Below, piece by piece: positions 3,397-27,144 of a DNA stretch of 27,145 bases (position 1 is its first letter; every line of letters begins with the position of its first letter). The translations under genes and the position numbers were made by a program. The stretch spans positions 1 to 27,145 of the IMG/VR virus record IMGVR_UViG_3300032665_000158; one strand, 5' to 3'. The notes below the pieces were generated by a model, which saw only the letters and a list, made by a program, of their open reading frames with translations, made no database searches and was not told the DNA's origin. Source of the DNA: a virus.

Positions 3397-5202
3397 AACT
3401 GGCGTGTAAACGGTGCTGTTAACACCGTCTTTCCAGACGGCGGTTGTTGCTCGACCAGACGCGAAAACGACTCGATTGTTAGTGGTATCCCATACCTGCT
3501 TGCCGGGATACTTGTTGATCGAATTAACCGTCGCCGATGCAAGCGCCAGATTTGTCGCCGTTTCTCTCGTGACGCCGGGATTAAACAACCCGTTTTTGAC
3601 GATGGTTGCCATGTCGGCAAACGTCTTTTCGTTGTTGACGGGCCCCTGATACACCTGCATTTTGGCGATTTTCAGAACAGGCGCCGATGTGTCGTATGGC
3701 GTGATTTGCACTGAGCCTGACGATCCAGCGTTGTAAACAGCCGCGGATAGGACAACTCGCGTTGTTTGTCCGGCCACCAACGACAACCCGCCATCCGTGC
3801 CAATTCTGCGAGTGTTGGTTCCGTCATAAAAAATGACGCTTACGGGGCAGGTAACCGACGACTTAATCAAAAAGGTAATTAAGATGTTTTGGTTTGCCAA
3901 CAAACCCGGAATGTTAAATACGTTGACCGAACCACCCGCGACGGACGTGCAAGCGATGTTTGCGCAATTGCCGAGTTCTGGATCTTCTACATAAGTCAGC
4001 GTACCCGCCGATCCGCCATAGGCTCCGATGGTCGGCGATGCGTCTGCCAGTAGCGGAGTCACTGAGGAATCAATGGTCAGGATTGGCGTTCCGTACAACA
4101 CGCACTGCTGGGTGATTCCGCCCGATTGCGCCATTCTTATTTCGTCGGGCCACCGCAGAACATTTTGCGTCAGGCCGATACCTTGAAAGCGGCCGGTCAA
4201 CACAACGCCACTGGTCGAATCTGCTTTGACCAAATAGCTGCCGGTGGTTGACGAACCGCCAGAAACATTGCCCAACGTCAGCGTCGAACTGTTTTCTAAA
4301 ATTGCAAAAGTCGTTGCGCCGTATTCCTCAACAACAAAATCCTCGCATCGAGCGCTCGCGCTACTGAGGTACAGCGAGCACTGCTTGACGGTCTTGCCTT
4401 GGATCGTCGCGGACGTCGGGCCGCTTTGGCAGTTGCCTTCAGGCGATCCACCGTAGAACGTCGCAGACGCACTAAATATCGCGATGCCGCAAAGACTGTT
4501 GCCGTTCGTTTGCAGGTTGTAAAAATTGTTCGCAATGGAACCCCAGTTGCCCGGGCTGCCATCAATCATCAAACCGACTTGCTTTGACGTTGCAATCAGT
4601 CCATAGAAGTCATTGCTGTTTGCCCCGCCGCCGGCGACGATTGGAGACAAATAGAATCCGACTCCAGTCCCGCCATTGGCGATCAAGTTCGTGAATCGGC
4701 AGAACTGCACTTGCCCAAAATTGAATGACACCGTGTCGGCGTATTCAACTTTCACATTGGACATCGTGAGATTAGCGACCGGATTGACCGTGTCTACAGC
4801 AAAGCCGGTGATTCCCGTTTTGCTGTTGTTGCTGATGTTTAGGTCACGGATTTCTTGGTAGTAGGTATTACCTAATCCGGGGCCGCCCGTCGCATAAACG
4901 ATAGTGATTGAGTTCGCTGACGCATTGACCAGCGAGTCATTGCCTCGCAAAGTTCCATTGCTTGGCACGGAGATTTGGCTAGAGAAATAGGTGCCGTATG
5001 GAAACGACACGGGGCCAACGGGGGACGCGGTGAACGCATTGGATATTGCCGTCGCGCTATTTGTAGCCCCTGTCGGATCTGCACCAAAGTCCAGAACGCT
5101 GACCGACTCTTGCAGCTTCGACGCCGTAGTGCGGTCAACAGCGCCAGTGCCGCCCTGGTTGTAGTGACTGCCGAGCTGGGAGAGGTTGTATGAGGCTGTC
5201 AT
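3394..5202 (-). CDS. Second tailspike, beta-helix without head-binding domain
   Basis: The 602-aa protein starts with a short leader and then the module SKLQESVSVLDFGADPTG (29 to 45) that also opens the beta-helix of the upstream spike. It continues as a beta-helix (repeats such as EIRDLNISNNSKTG, FYNLQTNGNSLCG). The C-terminal part (about 370 to 520) reads as a carbohydrate-binding-like beta domain with CPVSVIFYDGTNTRRIGTDGG. It has no P22-type attachment domain, so it probably docks on another fibre. A TAAGGA ribosome site embeds the previous stop. The whole gene is AT-richer than the flanking genes, suggesting acquisition from another phage. Confidence 0.83.
   Translation of the reverse strand: MTASYNLSQLGSHYNQGGTGAVDRTTASKLQESVSVLDFGADPTGATNSATAISNAFTASPVGPVSFPYGTYFSSQISVPSNGTLRGNDSLVNASANSITIVYATGGPGLGNTYYQEIRDLNISNNSKTGITGFAVDTVNPVANLTMSNVKVEYADTVSFNFGQVQFCRFTNLIANGGTGVGFYLSPIVAGGGANSNDFYGLIATSKQVGLMIDGSPGNWGSIANNFYNLQTNGNSLCGIAIFSASATFYGGSPEGNCQSGPTSATIQGKTVKQCSLYLSSASARCEDFVVEEYGATTFAILENSSTLTLGNVSGGSSTTGSYLVKADSTSGVVLTGRFQGIGLTQNVLRWPDEIRMAQSGGITQQCVLYGTPILTIDSSVTPLLADASPTIGAYGGSAGTLTYVEDPELGNCANIACTSVAGGSVNVFNIPGLLANQNILITFLIKSSVTCPVSVIFYDGTNTRRIGTDGGLSLVAGQTTRVVLSAAVYNAGSSGSVQITPYDTSAPVLKIAKMQVYQGPVNNEKTFADMATIVKNGLFNPGVTRETATNLALASATVNSINKYPGKQVWDTTNNRVVFASGRATTAVWKDGVNSTVYTPV
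5068..5157 (-). repeat. Spike linker module, copy 2
   Basis: Thirty codons near the start of the second spike gene, with SKLQESVSVLDFGADPTG identical in protein to copy 1 at 6952 to 7041. The DNA is also clearly related, with several synonymous changes. Confidence 0.9.
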
Positions 5203-12920: not shown

Positions 12921-13811
12921 TCAAGTGCCGGGTTTGCCCAACAACCAGGGCAACGCGCTGCTGATCTGGCTGCCGATGGCGTTACCCGCCCCGGCGATGC
13001 CGGCACCGATGGCCGTACCGGTGTTGGTCATCGACTGACCGATGCCGTTGGCGAACGACGAAGCGCCCGTGGCTTGGTTGGACGCGGCCGACTGGCCGAG
13101 CTGGGCGACTTGGCCCAAGCGCTGATAAATGTTGCCTTGCTGCGTCTGGTACTGATTAAAGGCGTTGTTAAATGCCGTGTTCGCAGCGCCCTGATTGAAC
13201 GACATCAGATCCTTCTGAGCCGCACCCGACAACGCACCTTCGCCGGCAGCGTCACCGTTCAATACGCCTTGCTGTCCCTGCTGAAGCTGGAACTGGTACG
13301 CCGGGGACATCTGGTGGAACTGGTCGATCGTGAACGGGGTCAGCAACGAGCCAAAGCCACCCGGGCCAGACGAAGACGCCGGCGCCGCGGTCGAGGCGGT
13401 GCTTGATGGGGCGGCTTGCAATTGAGGGTTGCCGAGAAAGCCACCGGGGCCACCGGGGCCGTTCTGGCCGGTCGTTTGCATGTACCCGCCACCGCCATAT
13501 CCCCCGAGGCCGTGAGCGCCACCGCCGCCGCCGTAGTTGGGCGTGCTGGCAGTGGATTGTCCCGTCGGCGAGTTATAGCCGGGGATGCCTAGCAGGTAAT
13601 TGAGGTAGTTCTGCGCGCCGTAGCCAGACTGTACGTAGGGCGCCTGATTGGCGACCATCGTATTGAACATACCCTGTTGAGCATTCGTCGCCGCTTGTGA
13701 CGCGTCCGCTTGCTGACTCGATCCAATGATTGAGCCGATCGCGCTGACACCGCCGCCGATAAGGCCAGCACCCAAAATTGCGCCCGCTGTACCGCCGACG
13801 AGAGAACTCAT
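12921..13811 (-). CDS. Ejection (DNA transfer) protein
   Basis: The 296-aa protein starts with a Gly/Ala-rich hydrophobic segment (GGTAGAILGAGLIGGGVSAIGSIIG, residues 6 to 30) that could insert in membranes. A helical region and a Gly-rich linker (about 90 to 130) follow. The best signature is residues 158 to 240: LTPFTIDQFHQMSPAYQFQL, then a Gly/Ala/Ser stretch and FNNAFNQYQTQQGNIYQRLGQVAQLGQ, known from podovirus DNA-transfer proteins. These leave the virion with the DNA and help form the channel through the cell envelope. It is the first of three such genes in tandem and starts in an ATGA overlap with the cupin-SET stop. Confidence 0.75.
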   Translation of the reverse strand: MSSLVGGTAGAILGAGLIGGGVSAIGSIIGSSQQADASQAATNAQQGMFNTMVANQAPYVQSGYGAQNYLNYLLGIPGYNSPTGQSTASTPNYGGGGGAHGLGGYGGGGYMQTTGQNGPGGPGGFLGNPQLQAAPSSTASTAAPASSSGPGGFGSLLTPFTIDQFHQMSPAYQFQLQQGQQGVLNGDAAGEGALSGAAQKDLMSFNQGAANTAFNNAFNQYQTQQGNIYQRLGQVAQLGQSAASNQATGASSFANGIGQSMTNTGTAIGAGIAGAGNAIGSQISSALPWLLGKPGT

Positions 13812-14641
13812 TGCATACTCTCCAAATTAACTTTGAGCCCTTGTATGTAGTCCACGGTGATCTCCTCACCGTCGTGGCCTCCACAAGAACCCGTGATGTC
13901 TTTAATGGCAAAGACGCCGATGTCGTTGTTGGGCATTAGCACCATCTTCGCGTTCGGGTGCTTGCCGTGATTGATGTACCGACCGGCCGGCGTACGGTTC
14001 TGGCCGATCCGTCCCAGACAAATCATCTCGCCCTCGGCAATGCGAGCCGTGGCAAATAAGCCACGCCCTGCAATCGCCGAATTCGCGACCTTGCATTTGT
14101 AACTGCCGTACGGAAACGGGATGACGTCATCCGTTTGTGAGAAGTGCTGCACTTCTTCAGCCGTCAATCCGATTTCGCCCAGCACTCGCTCAAAGTCCTC
14201 GATGTCCTCAAGGCGCGGTGCTACCGGTTGCGCTTTAATCGCCTTCCAGTGGTCGGTCATGTCGAGGAACATCTCGTCGAGCTGCTCGACATCCCGACAG
14301 TCGGTCGAGTGGACGTTGACCCAGACGCATTCGTCGTGGGTGTACGCCATCTTTCGCCCAGGCTGACCAATCGACAGCCACGGGGCCGACAAGGTCGACC
14401 GGCTGCCGTCGGCGTTGAACATGGTCAACGTACCGCGCAACAGCAGGTTTAAATGATCGGTCTTGTGCGAATGCCCCATCATCAGACTCTGCGCCGGCAT
14501 GACGGCGTGGCGCATGTAGATGCCCGGGGCGAAGGTATGAATGATGTCGGCGTGAACTTGAGGGAGCGCGACCAGCTCCTTCTCGGCTTCGTTCATTAAA
14601 GCCGGGAAGGCGGCAATACGCTCGGCGATCTCACTCGACAA
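13808..14641 (-). CDS. Cupin-SET fusion, probable protein lysine methyltransferase
   Basis: This 277-aa protein joins two domains. Residues about 40 to 115 read as a cupin barrel, with the metal-site pattern GHSHKTDHLNLLLRG (56 to 70) and a second motif near YTHDECVWVNVH. Residues about 181 to 266 read as a SET domain: SAIAGRGLFATARIAEGE, then RYINHGKHPN (221 to 230, the NHS-type motif with Gly for Ser), and GEEITVDY (258 to 265), whose Tyr265 is the expected catalytic tyrosine. SET enzymes move a methyl group from S-adenosylmethionine to lysine. The target is unknown. The start is a TTG overlapping the previous gene by 11 bases; an ATG at 14596 would drop 15 residues. The stop forms ATGA with the next gene. 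Confidence 0.82.
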   Translation of the reverse strand: MSSEIAERIAAFPALMNEAEKELVALPQVHADIIHTFAPGIYMRHAVMPAQSLMMGHSHKTDHLNLLLRGTLTMFNADGSRSTLSAPWLSIGQPGRKMAYTHDECVWVNVHSTDCRDVEQLDEMFLDMTDHWKAIKAQPVAPRLEDIEDFERVLGEIGLTAEEVQHFSQTDDVIPFPYGSYKCKVANSAIAGRGLFATARIAEGEMICLGRIGQNRTPAGRYINHGKHPNAKMVLMPNNDIGVFAIKDITGSCGGHDGEEITVDYIQGLKVNLESMQ

Positions 14642-14971: not shown

Positions 14972-15313
14972 TCATTGAGGTACGAAAGTAAGTTGGGGAG
15001 TCGACGAGTAGCGAATAATCAGCGAGTCACCGGCCGAGACCGGGAAACAGCCCGCCGTCATCCCGGTCGTGTAATTGGTCGACCCGTTCCGGCTGAATTG
15101 GATGAGCGAGATCGTCCCGCCGTTCACGATCAAAAAACCGCGCTGCGGAGCCACGAAGGTGTACGGCGACTGCACCGGGGTGACCGCGTATTCGTTCGCC
15201 GGCGGGTTGCCGTTCAGCAACGACTTAAAGAAGAAATACCAGACCTTGTTGGTCTGCTTGCCCTCGGTCAGCGAGACCTCGAACGTCGGCAGGTTATTGG
15301 TCGCAACGGTCAA
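14972..15313 (-). CDS. Small virion-associated protein, unknown (TTG start)
   Basis: The 113-aa product starts at TTG, which overlaps the previous stop as TTGA and has an AAGGAG ribosome site 7 bases upstream, so this start is convincing. The sequence has an N-terminal segment with KVWYFFFKSLLNGN and then beta strands: YTFVAPQRGFLIVNGGTISLIQFSRNG and AGDSLIIRYSSTPQLTF. The second half resembles the small trimeric beta modules found in tail or fibre components of podoviruses. There is no signal peptide. The function is unknown; position between gp10-like and cupin-SET genes suggests a tail or head-completion part. Confidence 0.65.
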   Translation of the reverse strand: MTVATNNLPTFEVSLTEGKQTNKVWYFFFKSLLNGNPPANEYAVTPVQSPYTFVAPQRGFLIVNGGTISLIQFSRNGSTNYTTGMTAGCFPVSAGDSLIIRYSSTPQLTFVPQ

Positions 15314-17058
15314 GCCGCTTCTCCTTCGTTGGCCTCACCCTGCGCCCACAGCGTGGCACCCACGATGTCGCGAGGGACGGGATCGGTAAAGTTGAGTTCG
15401 AACACCCGGTCGCGAGCGCGGCCCAGTCGGCGCCACGTCGCACGGTTGCGGGTCTGGCCGACGAGACCGATGCTCGTCCAATGCTCGTTGCCCCAACTGA
15501 AGCCGCCGTCGTTCGACCACCGCAGCATGGCTTGCGGGTTGGCGCCCTGCCCGGTCTGTAGACCGACGCCGGGGGTGAATTCGACCTGAATGGCAGCCAT
15601 GAACACGCGCTGGCGGTTTTCACGCGACCAGACGTGCGGGGTGCGCCGTTGGCAGCGGAGGATGTTCCCCGCGTCGGTGTAGACCTGACGCGACATCTGG
15701 TGGATCTGGCCGGTCTGGTAGTCACCGACCAGTCGCAGATCCTGCATGTTCATGTAGCAGTTCGAGCGGTGGCGGTGGTAGACGCCGGCGGTGGAATCCC
15801 ACGACGCCCGCTGGTGCCACATCTTGGTGGTCGCGTCGAACACCCACGTCACGTCAGCGGTCGGGAAGGTCAGGACATAGAACATATGCCCCTCCTCCTC
15901 GTACGCGTAACCGATCGCGTCGGACACGTACGGGTAGCCCGAGATGGCGTGCTCGATCGCGTGGGTGCTGATGCGCTCCCATGTGTACTGATTGGTCGCC
16001 ACCACCATGTTCTCGCCCTGCTCATTGCGGGCAAGCCACACCAACGCCGGGCCCATGCGGGTGATCGAGTGCTTGGCCGAGCAGCCGATCTGCGGGCCGA
16101 CGCCGGGTAGGCGGCTGAACGCAAAGTTGGCGCCGCCCTGGTTAAACCACACCTCGCTCGTCCGCTCACCGATCAGCCACAGCTCGCGGTTGTTCTCGTA
16201 CAGCGTGACGAGGTTGTCGGTCGAGCTGTCTTTGAGCGCGTAGAAGGCGCCCGCGAAGCTGACCGTGTACGGCACCGGCGCGGTGGTGAAGAACGTGCGC
16301 GTCTGGGTGTTGTTGAAGATCAGCCAGCCTTCGATGAAGGCGACGCGATCGGCGGGTAGCCACGCCGGGTCGGTGATCTGCTGGAAGGCCGGCAGCGTGG
16401 CCGTCAGGGTGTCTGAGGTGCTGATGGTGGCCGTCGCGTTGGCCGACAGGGTCAACGTCAGGGCGTTGTAACTGACGCCCGTAATGGTCGTTCCGGCCGG
16501 TATTGCACCGCCCGAATCGCTGACGGTGGCGCCACAGATGAATTGGTAGTTCGGCGAGCCGGTGAAGGTGACTACGTTGCTACCGGCGGTCGTGGTGACC
16601 GTCGTGGTCGCCGTGCCGGCGCCGCTCAGGCGATACAGGTAGCCGTAGGTGCCGTCAACGATGACGGCGTAGCCGCCCAGACCGCCGAAAATGGCGCCGT
16701 TGTCGCGGATGCAGACCGGCCCCGAATTGGTGTTCAGCGTCCCGACCATCGCGGTTGAGAACTGAGCAATGCTCGACTGCGTGGCCGGCACCGTCATCGT
16801 GATGAGGTAGACCGTCGCGCCGACCACGGCAAGGGCCGTAGAACCGCCGGGAAGCACCCACAAGCCGCGAACGGGGCCTGTCTGGGTGCTGAGTATGGGA
16901 TTCAGGCCGGGGCAGCCCAGAAGCGCTATCGGCTCCTTGGCGTCCTTCTCGGCATCGATCTCGGGATACCAATTGATGAGCCGCTGGGCATCCTGCAACA
17001 GCATCGGGGCTTCGTAAGCACCCCCGACTAGGCCGAAATCAGCGCCCTCGTAACTCAC
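15310..17058 (-). CDS. P22 gp10-like tail hub / DNA stabilisation protein
   Basis: The 582-aa protein begins SYEGADFGLVGGAYEAPMLLQDAQRLINWYPEI, typical of P22 gp10-type proteins, which bind below gp4 as a hexamer and close the packaged head. Later blocks are ADRVAFIEGWLIFNN, NRELWLIGERTSEVWFNQGG and YPYVSDAIGYAYEEEGHMFYVLTFP, which read as beta-propeller blades. Residues 149 to 222 hold a Thr-rich module related to one in the upstream adaptor. I chose the GTG at 17058 because it forms a GTGA overlap with the adaptor stop and matches the family start; a TTG at 17082 would add eight unlikely residues. Confidence 0.87.
   Translation of the reverse strand: MSYEGADFGLVGGAYEAPMLLQDAQRLINWYPEIDAEKDAKEPIALLGCPGLNPILSTQTGPVRGLWVLPGGSTALAVVGATVYLITMTVPATQSSIAQFSTAMVGTLNTNSGPVCIRDNGAIFGGLGGYAVIVDGTYGYLYRLSGAGTATTTVTTTAGSNVVTFTGSPNYQFICGATVSDSGGAIPAGTTITGVSYNALTLTLSANATATISTSDTLTATLPAFQQITDPAWLPADRVAFIEGWLIFNNTQTRTFFTTAPVPYTVSFAGAFYALKDSSTDNLVTLYENNRELWLIGERTSEVWFNQGGANFAFSRLPGVGPQIGCSAKHSITRMGPALVWLARNEQGENMVVATNQYTWERISTHAIEHAISGYPYVSDAIGYAYEEEGHMFYVLTFPTADVTWVFDATTKMWHQRASWDSTAGVYHRHRSNCYMNMQDLRLVGDYQTGQIHQMSRQVYTDAGNILRCQRRTPHVWSRENRQRVFMAAIQVEFTPGVGLQTGQGANPQAMLRWSNDGGFSWGNEHWTSIGLVGQTRNRATWRRLGRARDRVFELNFTDPVPRDIVGATLWAQGEANEGEAA
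16393..16614 (-). repeat. Beta-module insert, copy 2 (in gp10-like gene)
   Basis: This stretch encodes residues 149 to 222 of the gp10-like protein. The pattern AIPAGTTITGVSYNALTLTL then SANATATIST matches copy 1 in the gp4-like gene. It lies between YLYRLS and FQQITDPAWLPADRVAF, which are normally adjacent strands in the family. Confidence 0.7.
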
Positions 17059-18014
17059 GCGAAGCCGCCGTGCATGATCCAACCGGCGTCGGTGCGGCGA
17101 CTGCGGACGATGTCGCGGTCGAAGAAGGCTTCGACGTCCGGAATCTCGTTCAACGCTTTAATCGCTGCCTTCGATTCCATCGCTTGCTTCACCAGCAACG
17201 CCCCGGCGGTCTTGCCGTACTCGGGGGCGAGCTCGAGGGCGAGGTTTTTCTTGAGCGCTCGCGCAAAGCCTTGCGGGAGATTGATCGCCTGATTGACGTT
17301 CGCGAAGTCCGTCAGGATCGTGTCCGTCCACAGGTGCAACGAGCCCGCTTGCGACGGATTGGGGTAGAAATACAGGTTCCCGATCGGGTACGTCGGGTCG
17401 TAATAGCACAGGATCGGCCACGGGCCGGCCAGACCTTTGAGGCCAATGGCGGTGTACTTGTCGCGACCGACGATGTCGATGGGGTAATCGAGCCCGGTGT
17501 TACCGCTTGAGGTGATGCGGGTGAACGCGTTCGTGATCCGCAGCGGGCGGCCAATGGGGAAATTGCCCGGGGTCGTGTAGGTGATCGTCTCGGCCGCCGA
17601 CACCGTCGCCGTCGCATTCGCCGACATGGTCACCGTGTTGGTGCCGATCGACAGGATGGTGGTGCCGGAGGGGATCGCCGACTGCACGTCGGTGAGCGTG
17701 CCGCCCACGACGAGGTTGGACGGGATGGTCACGCCCGAGATAGTGGGTGAGCCGCTGACGAGGGTACCGGTGAACGTGCCGCCGACGGGGTTGCCGACGG
17801 TGTACTGGTATTGCCCTGGCGTAAAGGTGAGGATGTTCTCAACCGACGAGAAGATCATCAGCTTGTCGATCGACCACGCCTCGATGAGGTCGTTTAGGAC
17901 CATCAGGGCGTCAGCCGCGTCTGCGGCGCTCGGGGTTTCGCCGGCTTCCAATGCGTTGATGTTACGCAACGCGCCGGTGATGATGTCCATTGCGGTGGTG
18001 CTGTTTGCAGCCAT
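17055..18014 (-). CDS. P22 gp4-like head-to-tail adaptor with inserted beta module
   Basis: This 319-aa protein resembles P22 gp4-type tail accessory factors, which bind the portal after packaging and extend the channel. The helical N-terminus (MDIITGALRNINALEAGETPS, then ALMVLNDLIEAWSID) and the later segments RPLRITNAF, GNLYFYPNP, LPQGFARALKKNLALELAPEYG fit the family. Residues 77 to 148 look inserted: a Gly/Ser/Thr beta module ending IPSGTTILSIGTNTVTMSAN. The gene 3' of this one carries a related module. P22 gp4 itself is about half this length; longer homologues are common. The start is coupled to the previous stop and the stop overlaps the next start as GTGA. Confidence 0.85.
   Translation of the reverse strand: MAANSTTAMDIITGALRNINALEAGETPSAADAADALMVLNDLIEAWSIDKLMIFSSVENILTFTPGQYQYTVGNPVGGTFTGTLVSGSPTISGVTIPSNLVVGGTLTDVQSAIPSGTTILSIGTNTVTMSANATATVSAAETITYTTPGNFPIGRPLRITNAFTRITSSGNTGLDYPIDIVGRDKYTAIGLKGLAGPWPILCYYDPTYPIGNLYFYPNPSQAGSLHLWTDTILTDFANVNQAINLPQGFARALKKNLALELAPEYGKTAGALLVKQAMESKAAIKALNEIPDVEAFFDRDIVRSRRTDAGWIMHGGFA
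17571..17786 (-). repeat. Beta-module insert, copy 1 (in gp4-like gene)
   Basis: This stretch encodes residues 77 to 148 of the adaptor. It shares the pattern IPxGTTI-x(5 to 6)-NxxTxT-x-SANATAT-x-S with the second copy at 16393. It interrupts an otherwise continuous family sequence between a YTVG strand and GRPLRI. Confidence 0.7.
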
Positions 18015-19240: not shown

Positions 19241-20548
19241 TTAGCCGGCGATCTTGACGCCCAGTTCCGGATAGAGCGAAGCCCATCCGTAGAGCACGTC
19301 AAAGCGGGTGGGCAGGGCATCGTTGTTGATCGTGTACTGACGAACAACGCGGAAGTTGATACCTGCTTCCTCGTCGACCGCACGCGCGGCCATATCGACG
19401 CCGCCCGGCAGATCGAGGTCGGCGAACGCCAACGCCAAGCAGTCGCGGTGCATCGCAATGTTCTGCGGCGACACCGTGCCGGCATAAGCGCCCGACGCCG
19501 AGCCCCAGACCTGAATCGCGGCGTTGCTCGCAGGCTGCGCCGTGACGTTCTGGAACTGGCCACCGTAGATGCCCGCGTTCTTGACGTAGAAGTCGAGAGC
19601 GCCGCCCGAGGACGAGCTGTAGACACCGGTCGTGCTGTTGTACGTACCGTTCGACAACGTCGACGGCGGCGCAATAACGACGAACTGGCGCAGACGGTTG
19701 GAGCCGTACGCACCGCGGTTCTGCGGGTTGGCCGAGTACACGCCGGCGACGGTGATCACGTCGCCAACGGTCAGGCGAGCCGCCGCCGAAGCCGTCCAGC
19801 CCGTGGACTGGATAAGACCCGACGACGCCCAACCCGACGAGAGCCACGCGCTCGAGGTGTTGTTCGACAAGGTCGGCGTACCGCCCTGGGCGCCCACCGT
19901 GTAGGACACCACGTTCTGATCCATGTACCAGTCGAAGCCGGCGAAGTTCTTGGCGACCAAGCCCTTCTCGATCTGCTCGGCAACGCCCGATTGCGGGTTG
20001 AACAGGCCCTTCACGGAGTCCTGCGCGTACGCCATGCTGAACGGGTCAAGGATGACCACGCGCTCGCCATCGCGAGGCGCGGCTTCACCGTCGAGGATCG
20101 CGCCCGCGAGCGTGAAGCTCAGGAACGACGCCGGCGGCGTACCCGGGGTACCGACCGCGTTCGGGATGTTCTGGTACGCATACGTCGCGCCGTCGCGGTC
20201 GATCTTGTTCGCGACCGCGGCCACGGCCGGGTTGATGATGCGTTCCTTGAACATGTCGACGCTGGTCGCGAGGTCGGCCGTCGTGAACTGCACGTCGACG
20301 TGGAACTGGGTCGTGAGCGTGACCGGAATGTAGGTCTCGTTCGTGTCTTCCACGTTCAACGCCGGGCCGGTCGTACCGATGTAACGGGGCGGCTTGCGGA
20401 CGTTGACGGTGTAACCGACCTTGGCGCCCGACAGGGCGAATTGCGAGGCGTACTGGCGATTAACGTGATCGGCAAAGCACAGATCGTTTTCGAGGACCAT
20501 CAGGCCCTCGTTCGTGATCTGACTGATAGTCAGAAGGTTGTTAGACAA
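19241..20548 (-). CDS. Major coat protein, P22 gp5-like (TTG start)
   Basis: The 435-aa protein opens with SNNLLTISQITNEGLMVLEN, then FADHVNRQY and the strand KVGYTVNVRKPPRY, the hallmark N-terminus of P22 gp5-type coat proteins with an HK97 fold. The length also fits. Gly- and Ser-rich strands in the middle (about 215 to 340) would cover the inserted domain and outer face. The start is TTG, not ATG: an AGGAG ribosome site lies 6 bases upstream and the family N-terminus begins right there, while the next ATG (residue 17) would cut into the conserved helix. It lies 18 bases after the scaffold stop. The gene is followed by a GC-rich hairpin. Confidence 0.93.
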   Translation of the reverse strand: MSNNLLTISQITNEGLMVLENDLCFADHVNRQYASQFALSGAKVGYTVNVRKPPRYIGTTGPALNVEDTNETYIPVTLTTQFHVDVQFTTADLATSVDMFKERIINPAVAAVANKIDRDGATYAYQNIPNAVGTPGTPPASFLSFTLAGAILDGEAAPRDGERVVILDPFSMAYAQDSVKGLFNPQSGVAEQIEKGLVAKNFAGFDWYMDQNVVSYTVGAQGGTPTLSNNTSSAWLSSGWASSGLIQSTGWTASAAARLTVGDVITVAGVYSANPQNRGAYGSNRLRQFVVIAPPSTLSNGTYNSTTGVYSSSSGGALDFYVKNAGIYGGQFQNVTAQPASNAAIQVWGSASGAYAGTVSPQNIAMHRDCLALAFADLDLPGGVDMAARAVDEEAGINFRVVRQYTINNDALPTRFDVLYGWASLYPELGVKIAG

Positions 20549-20566: not shown

Positions 20567-21532
20567 TTAGCGCCGGCGCTGCCTCAATTCGTTCATCCGG
20601 AGCCGTTTGTAGTCCTGAAAGCTCAACGCCTCTCTCGAGTTCGTGGCTACAGGGGCTTCAGATCCACGAATTGAAGCAACGGGCGCGGGTGCGCGAGTGG
20701 TTTCAATAGTGGTTTTGGGCTTGGCTTCCGCTTTCGCTTCCGCCGCAGCCGATTTCTCAAACGATGTTTCGATCTTGCCGAGCTCGAGCAGCGCCTTCGC
20801 CGCGGGCAACGCAAAGATCCGCTTCTGATCGTCTGGATTTTTCGCCAAGTGGTACGCGATATGCGGGCCGTATTCGGACTCCAATATCGCGGCCTGTACG
20901 TGCGCTGGAACGGCCACTTTCACCCGGTCGGCGGCTGAAATGACCTCGTCGAAGTCCTCAAATTCGGACTTCGCAAGTTCCACACGAGTCTTCATCAACT
21001 CGTTTTGGCGTTCCATCGCCAGACGCTGCCGCTCGTCATCACGGGCTTTAGCGATCTGTTGTTCGGTCAGCTTGCGGTTGAAGTCCGTCAAGGCCTTCGC
21101 GAACGAGGCGATGTCCTGATAATCAGCCGGATTGGGCTCTTTGAGTGCCTCAGTCTTGGGCTGTTCGATCGACTTTAACGATTCAAGCTGTGCTTCCAGC
21201 TCGCCTATCCTGCGCTCGGCGCGAAGCTTGGCGTTGTACTCGTCTTCAGCGAATTCTTCGGCCTCTTTACGAGCTCGAGTCAGTTCGTTGATGCGAGTCT
21301 GGACGTCCTTCTTCTCGCCTTTCTTGGGGGCATCGGGTTCGCCCTGGGGCTCGGGTGGCGCATCCGGCGACGTTTCGCTGCCGGTGGCGACAATCGGGCT
21401 TTTTTCGGCGTCTGTACCAGTCGATTTATCGACCGCTGCGACGAGCTGTTCGTTCGTCTGAATATTGACGCTTTTGGTGCGTTCCGCTGCGTAATCCGCA
21501 AGGTTTGCGTTGGTCACAGTCGTAATAGCCAT
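20567..21532 (-). CDS. Scaffolding protein
   Basis: The 321-aa product lies between portal and coat, the P22 gp8 position. It has a low-complexity acidic/proline N-terminus (roughly 40 to 75), long charged coiled-coil helices from about 78 to 205 (LTRARKEAEEFAEDEYNAK and later RQRLAMERQNELMK), an Ala/Lys-rich linker, and a strongly basic C-terminal end, LRMNELRQRRR. Internal scaffolds of P22-like phages bind coat through a basic C-terminal helix-turn-helix, which fits. It would direct procapsid assembly and leave before or during packaging. Sequence similarity to gp8 itself is not obvious, so the call rests on composition and position. Confidence 0.8.
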   Translation of the reverse strand: MAITTVTNANLADYAAERTKSVNIQTNEQLVAAVDKSTGTDAEKSPIVATGSETSPDAPPEPQGEPDAPKKGEKKDVQTRINELTRARKEAEEFAEDEYNAKLRAERRIGELEAQLESLKSIEQPKTEALKEPNPADYQDIASFAKALTDFNRKLTEQQIAKARDDERQRLAMERQNELMKTRVELAKSEFEDFDEVISAADRVKVAVPAHVQAAILESEYGPHIAYHLAKNPDDQKRIFALPAAKALLELGKIETSFEKSAAAEAKAEAKPKTTIETTRAPAPVASIRGSEAPVATNSREALSFQDYKRLRMNELRQRRR

Positions 21533-21625: not shown

Positions 21626-23788
21626 CTATTCGGACCGTCGTTCCGCTTTTTCTGCGGACTTTTCGAGTTCTTTCGCCGCACGCCGGTTGTGTTCGGCCTC
21701 GGCGTGGGTGTTAAGCAGCTGCGTCGCGGCGTGGATCTCGGCCACGTCGTGCGCGGTGATGGACTTGACGTGCGTGTCGAACATTGAGGTGTGCGCCTTG
21801 GTCTGCACGTCCTCGCGCCGCACCCCGAGTTCCATCTGGGTGCGCTGCGTCTCGGCCTGTTCCTTCATCTGCAAACGCTGCGTCTCGCCCTGCTGGCGCA
21901 TCTGCTCGATGCCCGACTTGGTCTTGAGTTCCAGTTCGAGCGCCATGTGCGACTGCTGCATCTGTTGCAACTGCTGCTGTAGACCCTTAATCATCATCTG
22001 CGCCTTCGGCGGGATGTCAGAGTCCTTGTCGATCTGGGCGCCGGGGATCATCGCGGCCATGCGGTCAGCGATCGTGTCGGCGTCTGGGAAGTCCAGAGAG
22101 CGGACAACGACGTCACCCGCTACCTTGGCCGTCATCTCGCCGAGCGGCGTCGCCAAGAGCTCGAGCATGGCCTCCGCGGCCTCCTCGCGCTTGGTCTGGT
22201 AGCCCGGGCCGGTGTCGACCACGGTGTCGTACAAGCCGCCGGTGAGGTCGTTCTTGATCCGCACCACCGCTTGGGTCAGCGGGTCGCGGACTTTCTCGTT
22301 GATCGTGGTGGTGTCCGGCGTGCCATCGTCGCCGATGATGCGCTGGATACGCTGCGTGTCGTAGAAGTGCGGAATCAGGTCGCTGACGATCGCACCGATG
22401 TGCTTGAGCGAGCGGGTCAGGTTGTCGGCGAAGTCAAAGTGACTGATGTCCGACAGGCCCTGCCGGCGCTTGATCGCCAAGCCCGAGACCACTTCGCCCG
22501 GTGAGTCCTGACCCGGCTCGTGCGGCATACCCGCCACGGCCATAAAGTCGGACTGCGAGCCCTGTATCCACTGCATCAGCCCTTCGGCCGGCGCCATGGC
22601 CGACTGCCGTTGCGGCGGCGGCATCAGTTCGCCGTTCGGACCAGTGACCGGCTTGTACGGTAACGCGACGATCGGCTTGCGGTTGGCGTCGCGCCACGCC
22701 GCTTCGTGGCCTTCCATCTGCCCTTCGGCAATCAGCCAGGGCGCCTTCGGCTGGAGCGCGGCCACCTCGGTCATGGTGGTCTGACCGTAGTTGTACATGC
22801 GAGCCGGGTCGCGCAGGTCGCGGATCATGCCCTTGCGGACGATCCGGCCGTTGAGATCCACCTCGCGGCCGTACACCGGTACGATGGGGATGTACTTGCC
22901 CGGCCATTCGCGGCGGTCGAGGACGGCCGTCGCCGAGAGCAAATACCATTCGACGAATTTACGCATCACCCGGCGGGTGCGGACGATCTCAATGCCGGCC
23001 GCTTCGAGGGTGTCTTCTTCGGGCAGCTCGTCGGTGAACTTGGTGCTGCCGTCCGAGAGCATGTGCAGCGTGTCCATCTTGCGGTGGACGCGCCAGTATT
23101 CGGCGACCCGGATCTGCTCCTTGGTGGCCCAGTCGGCGACCGAGTCACCCGAGCCCATGTACTGCCAGCCGAGCGGATCGACGTCGCCGTAGCGGACGCG
23201 GTACTCGTCACGGCGCATCATGTCCGAGACGATTGCCCAGGACGCGTCCGAGCCGTCCGGCATCGAACTCGTCGGGTCGAAATAGACAGTGAACGGGTTG
23301 CGGATCGGATCGATCGTCAGATCCTGATCGAACGAGCGCTCGTCGACGTAGCGGCTGCCGACGCGGATGTAGCCCCAACCGCCCCGCACGGCGCTCTCGA
23401 CCGCGCAGTCGTAGGCGTAATCGGCGCTCGAGGCCGACTCAATGTGCCGCATGAGCCCGTTGCGGACCTTGGCCGCCTGTACGTCGGCGCCGTCGCCCAC
23501 GGGGTGAAACTTGATCCGGGGGCGGTTCTCGCGCAAAGCGTTGGTCACCCGGCGCACCATCGCGTCGGTGATGTTGATCGTCAGGCACGGACGGCCGTCG
23601 GTGTCGCGGTCGCGGCGTATGTCGACCGGCCATTGATCGCCGTTGGCGAAGTTGATGTCGGTCAACGCCTCGGTGCGATTGGCGCTTTCGCTGTCCATCG
23701 CAAGCTTGTACCGCTCTTGGCACTCAACGATCAGATCTTGGTCGTTGGTGGCGGCTGAGTCCGAGGCGTACGCCATTAAGTCATCCAA
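21626..23788 (-). CDS. Portal protein, P22 type
   Basis: The 720-aa protein matches P22 gp1-like portals in length and layout. It has an N-terminal helical segment with INFANGDQWPVDIRRDRD and then RPCLTINITDAMVRRVTNALRENRPRIKFHP, typical of this family. A long central stem/wing region follows, and a Gln-rich C-terminal coiled coil starts near residue 600 (QQQLQQMQQSHMALELELK and beyond) that would form the barrel reaching into the head. As a dodecamer it would be the DNA channel and the docking site for terminase and the gp4-like adaptor. Two starts are possible: ATG at 23788, or ATG at 23776, which forms a TAATG junction with the terminase stop. A modest AGG site favours the first. Confidence 0.93.
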   Translation of the reverse strand: MDDLMAYASDSAATNDQDLIVECQERYKLAMDSESANRTEALTDINFANGDQWPVDIRRDRDTDGRPCLTINITDAMVRRVTNALRENRPRIKFHPVGDGADVQAAKVRNGLMRHIESASSADYAYDCAVESAVRGGWGYIRVGSRYVDERSFDQDLTIDPIRNPFTVYFDPTSSMPDGSDASWAIVSDMMRRDEYRVRYGDVDPLGWQYMGSGDSVADWATKEQIRVAEYWRVHRKMDTLHMLSDGSTKFTDELPEEDTLEAAGIEIVRTRRVMRKFVEWYLLSATAVLDRREWPGKYIPIVPVYGREVDLNGRIVRKGMIRDLRDPARMYNYGQTTMTEVAALQPKAPWLIAEGQMEGHEAAWRDANRKPIVALPYKPVTGPNGELMPPPQRQSAMAPAEGLMQWIQGSQSDFMAVAGMPHEPGQDSPGEVVSGLAIKRRQGLSDISHFDFADNLTRSLKHIGAIVSDLIPHFYDTQRIQRIIGDDGTPDTTTINEKVRDPLTQAVVRIKNDLTGGLYDTVVDTGPGYQTKREEAAEAMLELLATPLGEMTAKVAGDVVVRSLDFPDADTIADRMAAMIPGAQIDKDSDIPPKAQMMIKGLQQQLQQMQQSHMALELELKTKSGIEQMRQQGETQRLQMKEQAETQRTQMELGVRREDVQTKAHTSMFDTHVKSITAHDVAEIHAATQLLNTHAEAEHNRRAAKELEKSAEKAERRSE

Positions 23789-25200
23789 CCTGTGGGTGAT
23801 GGCATTTGGTGATTAAATGCCTGTGGTTTCTTGAACGATTTCGTCGTTGCAAAGCGGCGCATCATCATCGCGTAGCGCGTGGCGCTCATCAGGTCATCGT
23901 TCTCTTTGACGATGAGCCCTTCTTTGCGGTGATAGACGTTGAATTCTTCGAACCAGTTGCTCAGGTGTGCAAACACCTTGAAGCGACCGGTCTGCATTCG
24001 ATCGAGCAGCTCGGACACGCCGGCTTCTAAGCCGTTGGTGCCGTCCTCGAAGGTGGCGCGGACGCCAAGCATCTTTAAGCCTTGCGCCCGGTACTGCGCC
24101 ATCAGCTGCTCGCCCGAGCCCTTGTCGTGCTGTAGACCGTCGTGCGGCCACGACCAGGGCAACCAATCGCCCCACGGCTTGACCGCGGCGGCGAACATGG
24201 CCGGCGTCTGCTCACGCGCTCGGTGCGTCGCAATGACGTATAAACAATCGGCATCCCGATCCCATGCCATGCGGACGGCCGCCGAAGGGTGATCCCAACC
24301 GAAGTCCAGACCGCAGATCTGCGGCCAGTGCTGCGGAATCGGGAACGATTCACACTGAATCGCGCCCTGGGCGATCGGGAACACGCGGCCCGAGCCCATA
24401 GCCGGGATGCCTCGCGTACGGGCATCGCGCTCGAACTCGGGGTAGGACGCAATGATCGCGGCCTTCTGCTCGTCCGAGTAATGGCTCGCATCGTCAATCG
24501 TCATGGTCGTGACGGACGTGCCGGGGACTTTCTCAATGATGAACCGACGCACGACGTTCGACATACCCAACAGCGGGGTAAACGTCATAAACACCATGCC
24601 GTTCGTGGCGTTGGTGCGGGTCAGCCCTTCGATGTAGATGTCGCTGTCCGGCTCTTCGTCAAACCACACATAGTCCAGCGTTTCGCCCTGCCATTTCTCG
24701 CGACCTTTCTCATACGATTTAAGTGCGATTGTGGAGATGTCGCCGGTGGCATGGCGAACGCTGATCGTGTCGACTAGGTCGGCGATACCGCGGGTGTTGC
24801 TGTAGTCAACAATCGCCGTTTTCGGTATCGAACCGGTACCGAATTGCCCCGGGCGTCCCAGCAAAATGCGCTGGACGTTGTCTCGGGTGCTTTCTCCGGT
24901 GATGCCGGCAACCCAGCCAGTTGTTGCTCGATCCCATCGGCGGCCTTGCCACCAATCGGGATATTGTCCTGTGGCGTGCATGGCCACTTCCATGCCGGCT
25001 GACCAGGTCTTGCCGACTTGGTTAGCAGCCATGAGTAACCGCTCTCGGTTACTGGCTCCGGCGGCATGGAAGTCACGTTGCTTTTGGTACGGGCCGTACG
25101 ACTTCAGCCTCGATTGGCGCTTGCGTAAATCCGCTTCCTTCATCAGCGCGGATAGCAAGCTGGCTTCGTAAGAACTCGATGCCGGCTGTGAGTTGGTCAT
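23776..25200 (-). CDS. Terminase large subunit
   Basis: This 474-aa protein is the packaging motor ATPase and headful nuclease that drives DNA into the procapsid through the portal. The ATPase shows a variant Walker A, ANQVGKT (59 to 65), a Walker B, YVWFDEEPD (178 to 185), and a coupling motif at MTFTPL (205 to 210). The nuclease half begins with GLDFGWDHP (297 to 305), where Asp299 is the expected first metal ligand, and an acidic cluster (ENDD) lies near the C-terminus. The length fits P22 gp2-like terminases. The 25200 start has a GGAAG ribosome site; a later ATG at 25143 has none. The stop overlaps the portal start region. Confidence 0.95.
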   Translation of the reverse strand: MTNSQPASSSYEASLLSALMKEADLRKRQSRLKSYGPYQKQRDFHAAGASNRERLLMAANQVGKTWSAGMEVAMHATGQYPDWWQGRRWDRATTGWVAGITGESTRDNVQRILLGRPGQFGTGSIPKTAIVDYSNTRGIADLVDTISVRHATGDISTIALKSYEKGREKWQGETLDYVWFDEEPDSDIYIEGLTRTNATNGMVFMTFTPLLGMSNVVRRFIIEKVPGTSVTTMTIDDASHYSDEQKAAIIASYPEFERDARTRGIPAMGSGRVFPIAQGAIQCESFPIPQHWPQICGLDFGWDHPSAAVRMAWDRDADCLYVIATHRAREQTPAMFAAAVKPWGDWLPWSWPHDGLQHDKGSGEQLMAQYRAQGLKMLGVRATFEDGTNGLEAGVSELLDRMQTGRFKVFAHLSNWFEEFNVYHRKEGLIVKENDDLMSATRYAMMMRRFATTKSFKKPQAFNHQMPSPTGWMT

Positions 25201-25459
25201 CGGTCAAGTCTTCCAAGGCTTTGGCCGGCTCGACCTGCTTGGGCAGCAAAGATGCAATCATCTTCACGTAACCCATGGGGTCTTCTTCGCGGGCCGCCTC
25301 GATCGCCCGCTTGCCGTGTTGCTCGAAATCGTCCGCGAGTCGGTTCAGGAATGACCCTGTAACCTTCAGTCGCGCGCCGACGGGCCTGCCGCCGGGGTTG
25401 CCCGATTGCCCGGGCTTGAATTGATAGCTAACCAGCTGCTGCGCGGTATTGCCTGGCAT
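25073..25459 (-). CDS. Probable small terminase subunit (DUF5681-like)
   Basis: The 128-aa product begins with YQFKPGQSGNPGGRPVGAR (residues 12 to 30), the signature of DUF5681 proteins. These lie just upstream of the large terminase in many phages and are taken as DNA-recognition (small) subunits. A helical region follows, with LNRLADDFEQHGKRAIEAAREEDPMGYVKMIASLLPK. The ATG at 25459 has an AGGA ribosome site and overlaps the end of the co-chaperonin gene by 32 bases. The 3' end overlaps the large terminase start by 128 bases, which is long for a phage junction. The role rests on the motif and position, not on a demonstrated DNA-binding domain. Confidence 0.75.
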   Translation of the reverse strand: MPGNTAQQLVSYQFKPGQSGNPGGRPVGARLKVTGSFLNRLADDFEQHGKRAIEAAREEDPMGYVKMIASLLPKQVEPAKALEDLTDDQLTAGIEFLRSQLAIRADEGSGFTQAPIEAEVVRPVPKAT

Positions 25460-25853
25460 GGATTCCTGCCACGTCCTTTTCGGACGCGATGATGTGTTCT
25501 TCGCCGCGGTACATGATCCGCGGGAACGCGTAACCACCGATGTCCAAGCCGCCGAGTTCCACGATATCGCCTACCTTGACTTCGGTGGGGCGAAAGACTT
25601 TTGACTTCCAGACCTTGGAGCGGTCGCTGTTGTATCGGTTGGGGAACTCGCCCGGGCCGATGGCGACAACCTCACCGCGTAGGGTGCGACCTCGCCAATG
25701 GGCCTCGATGGTGGTCGACAGCTCGACCTTGAGCGGTCGGACGATCATCCGATCGCCCAGCGGCTTGATGTTCTCGTCCACCCACTCGACACGCCCATCG
25801 CGCATGTCGAGACCTTCTTGTCGGATCTGCGGCTTCGGGGGCGAGAGGATCAT
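25428..25853 (-). CDS. GroES-like co-chaperonin (Cpn10 fold)
   Basis: Residues 29 to 131 of this 141-aa protein follow the Cpn10 pattern. The N-terminal strand reads IKPLGDRMIVRP. The mobile-loop region follows, then GEVVAIGPGEF, then VKVGDIVEL, and near the end YRGEEHIIASEKDVAGI, which matches the closing strands of GroES. A 28-residue N-terminal extension and a longer insert at residues 70 to 90 are unlike bacterial GroES. The loop expected to contact GroEL, about residues 43 to 58, lacks the usual GGIVL sequence. GroES caps GroEL during protein folding; T4 gp31 is the classic phage substitute and the P22 coat protein is a known GroEL/ES substrate. Its place in the head operon suggests help with coat folding, which is an inference. 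Confidence 0.85.
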   Translation of the reverse strand: MILSPPKPQIRQEGLDMRDGRVEWVDENIKPLGDRMIVRPLKVELSTTIEAHWRGRTLRGEVVAIGPGEFPNRYNSDRSKVWKSKVFRPTEVKVGDIVELGGLDIGGYAFPRIMYRGEEHIIASEKDVAGIHARQYRAAAG

Positions 25854-26026
25854 GGATGCTTGAGAGCTGAGGTTTTCACTTCGCGCCGGATGAGCGCCTT
25901 GTCTTCGGCCTCATCCTCGTGGCGGCGCTTCTTGCGGCGCTTGTACTTGCCAACGGTCGACTCCTCGCCGTCCATGAAGCGGCCCATGAACTTAGCCAGG
26001 TTGTCGCCCTTATGCGGCGAGGACAT
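25850..26026 (-). CDS. Small basic protein, unknown
   Basis: A 58-aa open frame exactly fills the space between two late genes. It starts in a TAATG overlap with the His-rich gene and its TGA overlaps the ATG of the co-chaperonin gene. The N-terminal third is mixed (KFMGRFMDGEE). A very basic patch, GKYKRRKKRR, follows and then an acidic stretch, EDEAEDK. Head-to-tail junctions on both sides are the main evidence that it is translated. The basic patch suggests nucleic-acid contact, but no family was recognised. Confidence 0.7.
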   Translation of the reverse strand: MSSPHKGDNLAKFMGRFMDGEESTVGKYKRRKKRRHEDEAEDKALIRREVKTSALKHP

Positions 26027-26356: not shown

Positions 26357-26385
26357 AAAAAAAAGCCCCACTCAATGGCGGGGCT
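26357..26385 (-). terminator. Intrinsic terminator ahead of the late operon
   Basis: On the minus strand, AGCCCC and GGGGCT form a 6-bp GC-rich stem around a 10-base loop, followed by eight T residues. It ends 16 bases before the ATG of the first late gene, whose AGGAG ribosome site follows the T-run. A terminator placed between a Q-like gene and the late genes is what antitermination control needs. Confidence 0.85.
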
Positions 26386-26390
26386 CAAGA

Positions 26391-26474: not shown

Positions 26475-26831
26475 TCAAATTGCACTCGAAATGTATCCAC
26501 ACACTCGCCAGCGAGCGCGGTTCAGAACGGCATCGAAGCGACGCAAGGAAAGCTTGAGCCGGCGTGCGAGCAGCTCACGCGGCGCCCACTTGAGGTAGTA
26601 CTCCCGGATGACGGCGCGATCCTCACCGCTCAGGTGGGCGACCGCGCGGTCGGTGATGGCCACGGGCTCCGGCATGTCCGACACTTGACCCGTGCCGTGA
26701 CTGGCGCCCGGCCCCTCCTCGATCAGCCGGCCAAGGATGGTGCGCTCCGGCCAACCGCCCGGCGCCTTATCTCGCGCCCAGCGTGACCACGCCTCGAGGC
26801 GCAGGTGCACCAGTTGGATCTCGGGCGCCAT
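26475..26831 (-). CDS. Possible Q-like late antiterminator
   Basis: The 118-aa product is basic and helical. It opens with LRLEAWSRWARDKAPGGWP and ends with a helix-turn-helix-like stretch, roughly residues 65 to 110 (HLSGEDRAVIREYYLKW followed by LARRLKLSLRRFDAVLNRAR), resembling sigma region 4. Proteins of this shape are often annotated as antitermination Q-like in phages of Gram-negative bacteria. The context agrees: the gene lies directly upstream of a leader with an intrinsic terminator and then the whole late operon. The start is uncertain. I chose the ATG 19 bases after the nuclease stop; an in-frame GTG at 26861 that overlaps that stop would add ten residues. No strong ribosome site is visible for either. 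The regulatory role is inferred from shape and position. Confidence 0.55.
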   Translation of the reverse strand: MAPEIQLVHLRLEAWSRWARDKAPGGWPERTILGRLIEEGPGASHGTGQVSDMPEPVAITDRAVAHLSGEDRAVIREYYLKWAPRELLARRLKLSLRRFDAVLNRARWRVCGYISSAI

Positions 26832-26850
26832 GTGACTGCGCGCCCGCCGA

Positions 26851-27144
26851 TCAGGGTTCACAGTTGTCGATCCAGACGTTGCAGACACGTTGGGCTTCCT
26901 CCAAGTTGTGAACAACAAAACGCACCGCGCCCTCTGAGAGCGCAAAAAACTTGACCTGATCCGGTGTCAGCCCTTTGCCCGGCATCTTGACCTCGAGCAA
27001 GGCAAAGTGCGGGCGGCCCGTGCGGCCGACCAGTAGGTCGACGGGCGTGTCCAGGCGAATGACCCAGTACCCGAGGGCCTCCAAACCGTGCACGATGGGC
27101 AGTTCGTTGGCGTCTCTTTTGGCGGCATAGCGATTGAGGCTCAT
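26851..27144 (-). CDS. VRR-NUC-type small nuclease
   Basis: This 97-aa protein has the layout of stand-alone VRR-NUC nucleases of the PD-(D/E)XK superfamily. A leading helix contains Glu14. It is followed by a strand with Asp36 in the segment VDLLVG, and then by LLEVK, which supplies Glu51 and Lys53. These are the expected metal-binding and catalytic residues. Family members cut DNA junctions or flaps, and phages often carry them near the end of the replication region, just before late control genes. The ATG lies one base from the window edge. The length is normal for the family, so the gene is probably complete, but its upstream context is not visible. The fold call is strong; the exact DNA substrate cannot be read from sequence. 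Confidence 0.85.
   Translation of the reverse strand: MSLNRYAAKRDANELPIVHGLEALGYWVIRLDTPVDLLVGRTGRPHFALLEVKMPGKGLTPDQVKFFALSEGAVRFVVHNLEEAQRVCNVWIDNCEP

What the first reader, a model, noticed from the sequence alone, without database searches (positions are those of the whole stretch)
25428..25853. Phage-encoded GroES-like co-chaperonin in the head operon
The Cpn10 pattern is clear, but the region expected to be the GroEL-contacting mobile loop (residues 43 to 58) differs from the usual sequence, and there is an N-terminal extension. T4 gp31 replaces GroES for T4 coat folding, and the P22 coat is a GroEL/ES substrate. Here the gene is expressed with the terminases, portal and a P22-type coat, so a dedicated folding helper for this coat is a good hypothesis.
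Basis: partly seen in the sequence, partly recalled or inferred. Interest (0 to 1): 0.72.

Follow-up and report, generated by a model that had tools for sequence, protein, structure and literature searches.

The report
Phage GroES-like head-protein folding helper
This phage carries its own version of the bacterial protein-folding cap GroES, and nearly every phage with the same kind of shell protein carries one too, which suggests that it helps the host's folding machine make phage head proteins.

Summary
The minus-strand ORF 25853..25428 (141 aa) is a Cpn10/GroES-family protein by Pfam, PHROGs and predicted fold. It has a 27-residue N-terminal extension, a mobile loop 4 residues shorter than that of GroES and without Gly-Gly-Ile-Val-Leu, and an enlarged roof segment. 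The loop is not decayed: 36 aligned family members mostly keep Ser-x-x-[Ile/Leu]-x-[Val/Ala/Ile], and four close relatives show no amino-acid change there despite heavy synonymous change. No GroEL gene was found in 18 of 18 records searched, so it must use host GroEL if it is a co-chaperonin. New result: Cpn10 tracks a clade of P22-type head modules. Of viral contigs with a coat at least 51% identical and at least 7 kb upstream, 32 of 32 have it (31 within 10 kb, one about 13 kb away). Two sister coat groups have 6 of 24 and 0 of 35; six TerL relatives with other heads have none. This supports a head-folding helper but does not single out the coat: Cpn10 divergence follows the portal better, and in one sister group the gene overlaps the portal start. 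GroEL binding and the client are inferred. Phage GroES genes are known.

The parts
25428..25853 (-). Cpn10/GroES-like gene, 141 aa
25773..25853 (-). conserved N-terminal extension (residues 1-27)
   Evidence: conserved EGxDM/L in relatives; pLDDT mostly under 50
25677..25727 (-). mobile-loop region (residues 43-59), short form S-x-x-I-x-A
   Evidence: low model confidence, as expected of a free loop
25578..25649 (-). enlarged roof segment (residues 69-92), strongly conserved in the closest subgroup
   Evidence: pLDDT 92-95 over residues 61-100
25850..26026 (-). 58-aa basic ORF whose TGA overlaps the Cpn10 ATG (ATGA)
25073..25459 (-). DUF5681 protein, likely small terminase; its ATG lies inside the end of the Cpn10 gene
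   Evidence: the small-terminase role is inferred from position
23776..25200 (-). large terminase
21626..23788 (-). P22-type portal
   Evidence: E=8e-166
20567..21532 (-). head scaffolding protein
19241..20548 (-). P22-type coat protein, 435 aa, 46 kDa; candidate client
26363..26386 (-). terminator-like hairpin just upstream of the operon
   Evidence: 3 found in the region, 1.5 expected

Best explanation
A phage-encoded Cpn10 co-chaperonin, translated with the head genes, which caps the host's GroEL during infection and helps fold phage head proteins, most probably the 46-kDa P22-type coat. Shown: family, fold, place in the operon, purifying selection on the loop, absence of a GroEL gene in the related records searched, and near-universal presence with one clade of head modules. 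Inferred: ring formation, binding to host GroEL through the short I-x-A loop, and the identity of the client.
For: Pfam and PHROG matches; the 32 PDB matches with E<=0.001 are all Cpn10/GroES chains or chloroplast Cpn20/Cpn23; VIA-align Z 10.9 to Mtb Cpn10 and 10.5 to GroES 1aon. Loop: S46 in 30 of 36, I/L at 49 in 34 of 36, V/A/I/L/M at 51 in 34 of 36 family members; no amino-acid change in 43-59 among window, L025, L026 and L027 with pS 0.37-0.71. No GroEL gene in 18 of 18 records. Distribution: coat clade A (51.5-100% identity) 31 of 32 contigs with at least 7 kb upstream, the 32nd (L115) has it farther upstream in its record; 8 of 8 bacterial-genome loci with at least 7 kb upstream; sister B 6 of 24, sister C 0 of 35; TerL relatives with other heads 0 of 6. 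Both window-like TerL (15 of 37 loci) and other TerL occur with Cpn10. In L070-L072 the gene lies just after the coat instead of before the terminase, so it was kept through rearrangement. Size: the coat is 46 kDa, below the 56-kDa gp23 said to be slightly too large for the GroEL-GroES cage (PMC6318259, passages). P22 coat ts mutants interact with GroEL/S in vivo (PMC2267774, passage).
Against: No experiment. The loop lacks GGIVL and has Glu in the middle of the hydrophobic triplet. Cpn10 distances correlate with the portal (0.65) and scaffold (0.60) more than with the coat (0.51), and the coat signal vanishes given the portal (-0.16). In sister B the gene overlaps the portal start in 7 of 7 Cpn10-bearing loci. 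The loci share ancestry, so the counts are not independent. Wild-type P22 has a P22-type coat and no Cpn10, so such coats do not need one in general.
Confidence: 0.62

Rival explanations
1. Same co-chaperonin mechanism, but the main client is the portal or another head protein (terminase, head as a whole), not the coat.
For: Cpn10 distances follow the portal best; in sister B and in DSL-LC05 the gene lies directly before the portal, overlapping it; in the window it is next to the terminase genes.
Against: The portal (720 aa, about 80 kDa by residue count) is too large for the cage; portals of the same type occur without Cpn10 in 18 of 24 sister-B and 35 of 35 sister-C loci (portals seen in the sampled phages); TerL relatives lack Cpn10 (0 of 6).
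Confidence: 0.2
2. A Cpn10 fold reused for a GroEL-independent job (for example a ring-shaped assembly or virion part), with the loop no longer a GroEL ligand.
For: Loss of GGIVL, long N-terminal extension, enlarged conserved roof.
Against: The loop is strongly constrained and keeps spaced hydrophobic residues in 34 of 36 members, and several members with the same head module keep canonical-like loops (GILV, IVV, IVL).
Confidence: 0.1
3. A general host-fitness or stress gene carried by chance, or a modifier that pulls host GroEL away from host proteins, with no specific head client.
For: Phage GroES genes are common in predicted viral proteomes and occur in other phage types, e.g. siphovirus B8b (PMC4294664, passages). 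Phage Cpn10s are reported to replace GroES for all E. coli GroE substrates (gp31: PMC6318259, passages).
Against: Tight link to one head-module clade, retained through gene relocation and TerL exchange.
Confidence: 0.08

Closest known systems
Bacterial GroES / Cpn10 (Pfam PF00166)
   Same: Family profile above cut-off, beta-barrel fold, core motif PLxDRxxV and GEVVAVGPG, position of the loop
   Different: 27-residue N-terminal extension, loop 4 residues shorter without GGIVL, roof segment about 11 residues longer, far below NCBIfam GroES cut-offs
T4 gp31 co-chaperonin
   Same: Phage-encoded Cpn10 fold linked to a head; Z 7.2 to gp31 in 2cgt, rmsd 2.5, 70 aligned
   Different: gp31 has a longer loop (22 against 16 in GroES) and no roof (PMC6318259, passages); this protein has a shorter loop and a larger roof
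Annotated co-chaperonin GroES of Xanthomonas phage PBR31, MW202674, MW202520 and phage DSL-LC05
   Same: Cpn10 gene beside head genes of P22 type
   Different: No N-terminal extension; shorter roof; PBR31 keeps a GILV loop

Membership tests
Cpn10/GroES (PF00166) | curated Pfam profile score | tested here: met
   23.6 bits, cut-off 21.1
Cpn10/GroES (PF00166) | Cpn10 beta-barrel fold | tested here: met
   AF2 model, core pLDDT over 90; Foldseek and VIA-align top hits all Cpn10
Cpn10/GroES (PF00166) | mobile loop with GroEL-binding hydrophobic residues | tested here: inconclusive
   GGIVL absent; I/L-x-V/A/I/L/M kept in 34 of 36 at each position
Cpn10/GroES (PF00166) | heptameric ring | not testable with these tools
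   only single chains can be predicted here
Cpn10/GroES (PF00166) | ATP-dependent binding to GroEL and folding activity | not testable with these tools
   needs the bench
NCBIfam GroES equivalogs | score over the equivalog cut-off | tested here: not met
   best 33.3 of 136 bits: not an ordinary bacterial GroES
PHROG 3188 co-chaperonin GroES | profile match over most of the profile | tested here: met
   E=4e-5, profile positions 2-94 of 96
T4 gp31-type | long mobile loop and no roof | tested here: not met
   loop 4 residues shorter than GroES, roof longer (gp31 features)

The most novel reading that the evidence does not exclude
A branch of P22-type heads depends on a dedicated co-chaperonin that re-tools host GroEL in the direction opposite to T4 gp31: a shorter loop, a large ordered roof and an N-terminal tail that co-occurs with that roof make a closed or substrate-contacting cap specialised for its head protein rather than a roomier cage.
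Probability: 0.3. Interest if true: 0.62.

Novelty: new variant of a known kind. Interest (0 to 1): 0.42.

Why it matters
T4 gp31 is the standard case of a phage replacing GroES for its capsid protein. P22 coat is a classic GroEL/ES client, yet P22 itself carries no Cpn10. Here a related branch of P22-type heads carries one almost without exception while sister branches mostly do not, which gives a natural comparison for asking why some capsids need their own folding cap. The variants differ in loop and roof, so each part's effect on cage and client can be tested with existing E. coli tools.

Tried and rejected
Rejected: a plus-strand gene (stops in frame). Rejected: a decaying GroES copy (loop pN 0 with pS 0.37-0.71 among four close relatives; 141-aa frame intact in all full-length relatives). 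Rejected: hitch-hiking with the terminase alone (Cpn10 occurs with window-like and other TerL; TerL relatives lack it). A first search of the phage collection with P0001 found only host-type GroES and Enterococcus records at 31-33% identity, and L012's protein found nothing; relatives came from IMG/VR. A mirror-tree test meant to favour the coat went against it. N-terminal extension: no match and low confidence; function unknown. VIA-align also lists the MDR dehydrogenase family at Z 5-7, which the tool's notes describe as common background; not pursued. Literature: searches found no paper that links Cpn10 to a P22-type coat clade; the most relevant paper, Marine et al. 2017 ISME J on virioplankton chaperonins, is cited in papers I saw but is not held, so the link may be in print there; Keppel et al. 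2002 is not held either. Dropped rows: in A3 I chose start codons myself for rows without annotation, and rows with identical proteins were merged; L068 was left out of the set; one search kept 26 loci with distinct Cpn10 and full coat, portal and scaffold.

Full report
What is there. The ORF lies on the minus strand, 25853 to 25428, 141 aa. It matches Pfam Cpn10 above the curated cut-off, PHROG 3188 co-chaperonin GroES and GroES chains in the PDB, but stays far below the NCBIfam GroES cut-offs. An AlphaFold2 model from 38 window and viral-contig sequences has mean pLDDT 74.6, over 90 in the barrel, about 65 in the loop and under 50 in most of the extension. All 32 PDB matches with E<=0.001 are Cpn10/GroES or chloroplast Cpn20/Cpn23 chains; VIA-align gives Z 10.9 (rmsd 4.0, 94 aligned) to Mtb Cpn10, 10.5 (2.6, 93) to GroES in 1aon and 7.2 (2.5, 70) to gp31 in 2cgt.

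Operon. A 58-aa basic ORF ends in a TGA that overlaps the Cpn10 ATG, and the ATG of the DUF5681 protein (likely small terminase) lies within the end of the Cpn10 gene. TerL, P22-type portal, scaffold and P22-type coat follow on the same strand. A terminator-like hairpin lies upstream. Co-translation with the head genes is therefore likely (inference).

Anatomy. Compared with GroES the loop segment has 19 instead of 23 residues and lacks GGIVL. Across 36 aligned family members Ser is kept at position 46 in 30, Ile/Leu at 49 in 34 and a small hydrophobic residue at 51 in 34. Between the window and L025, L026 and L027 the loop has pN 0 with pS 0.37-0.71 in all six pairs. The roof segment (69-90) has 22-28 residues in the first 16 rows of A3, against 2-12 in all but one (L129, 22) of the other 20 rows; 14 of these 16 rows carry an N-terminal extension of 19 or more residues as I set the starts (L111 was cut short by my coordinates, L032 has none as set), against 0 of 20. 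Extension and large roof thus go together. T4 gp31 went the other way, with a longer loop and no roof (PMC6318259, passages).

Distribution. Coat relatives in IMG/VR (best 80 of 200 kept) were scanned with a profile built from the family. Of 32 with at least 7 kb upstream, 31 have Cpn10 on the same strand (same as without the two phage records); the last, L115, has a Cpn10 about 13 kb upstream in its record. Two phage records with at least 7 kb upstream, PBR31 and MW202674, have it as well, and so does MW202520, across the end of its record. Of 11 loci from bacterial genomes, 9 have it; the two misses have 0.2 and 3.5 kb left before the portal. Those genomes, Burkholderia and Paraburkholderia among them, also have an ordinary GroES (9 of 9 genomes searched). 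Sister group B (coat 37-40% identical; best 80 of at least 600) has 6 of 24, and sister C (31-35%; best 80 of 115) 0 of 35. Whole-record searches agree: A 18 of 20 (the two misses, L141 and L121, have 6.1 and 2.2 kb before the coat in the fetched piece), B 3 of 16, C 0 of 19. Among 16 phage records 4 match: PBR31, MW202674, MW202520 and DSL-LC05; the six TerL relatives with other heads, P22 among them, do not (Baldr had one match below the cut-off only). In the reverse direction, of 41 loci found by the Cpn10 query (L032-L072), 26 show the clade's portal, scaffold or coat and the other 15 show none of them; those end within a few kilobases after Cpn10.

How it works. Best reading: a co-chaperonin for host GroEL (no GroEL gene in 18 of 18 records) serving head proteins. 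For the coat speak its 46 kDa, the known GroEL/S interaction of P22 coat mutants (PMC2267774, passage), the gp31-gp23 precedent and the clade link. Against the coat as sole client: distance correlations over 26 loci are 0.65 for the portal, 0.60 for the scaffold and 0.51 for the coat, and the coat term is -0.16 once the portal is held fixed; and in 7 of 7 Cpn10-bearing sister-B loci the gene overlaps the portal start, as in DSL-LC05. The portal is too large for the cage, which weakens but does not remove that rival. The counts share ancestry and are not independent trials.

Clade A coats are longer (median open frame 434 against 405 and 407, stop to stop), with extra residues in the insertion-domain region of the alignment. 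Whether that explains a folding need is a guess.

Novelty. Phage GroES genes are known. The short-loop, large-roof, N-extended form and the link to one P22-type head clade were not found in the papers searched, with the limit that Marine et al. 2017 could not be read.

Noticed in passing
window 13808-14641 (-): A phage ORF with a SET domain (Pfam E=4.7e-9) between structural genes; a lysine-methyltransferase-type fold is unusual there.
   Followed up: no
window 15310-17082 and 17055-18014 (-): Two neighbouring tail/connector-like proteins seem to share a stretch of about 60 residues ending in SANATATxS, perhaps a repeated beta module.
   Followed up: no
window 26363-26386 and 26475-26945 (-): Terminator-like hairpin before the late operon with a weak antiterminator-Q-like match upstream (phrog_79 E=0.041): possible antitermination control.
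   Followed up: no
L099:3753-4025 and 4451-4831: One contig carries two Cpn10 genes side by side, one canonical-like (GGILIPL loop) and one short-loop with extension.
   Followed up: partly
L070, L071, L072: Cpn10 lies directly after the coat gene instead of before the terminase.
   Followed up: partly
L216, L229, L234, L238, L243, L265, L267: In these sister-group contigs Cpn10 overlaps the start of the portal frame.
   Followed up: partly
L164, L166, L171: Burkholderia/Paraburkholderia contigs carry this head module with Cpn10, probably as prophages, beside the host's own GroES.
   Followed up: partly
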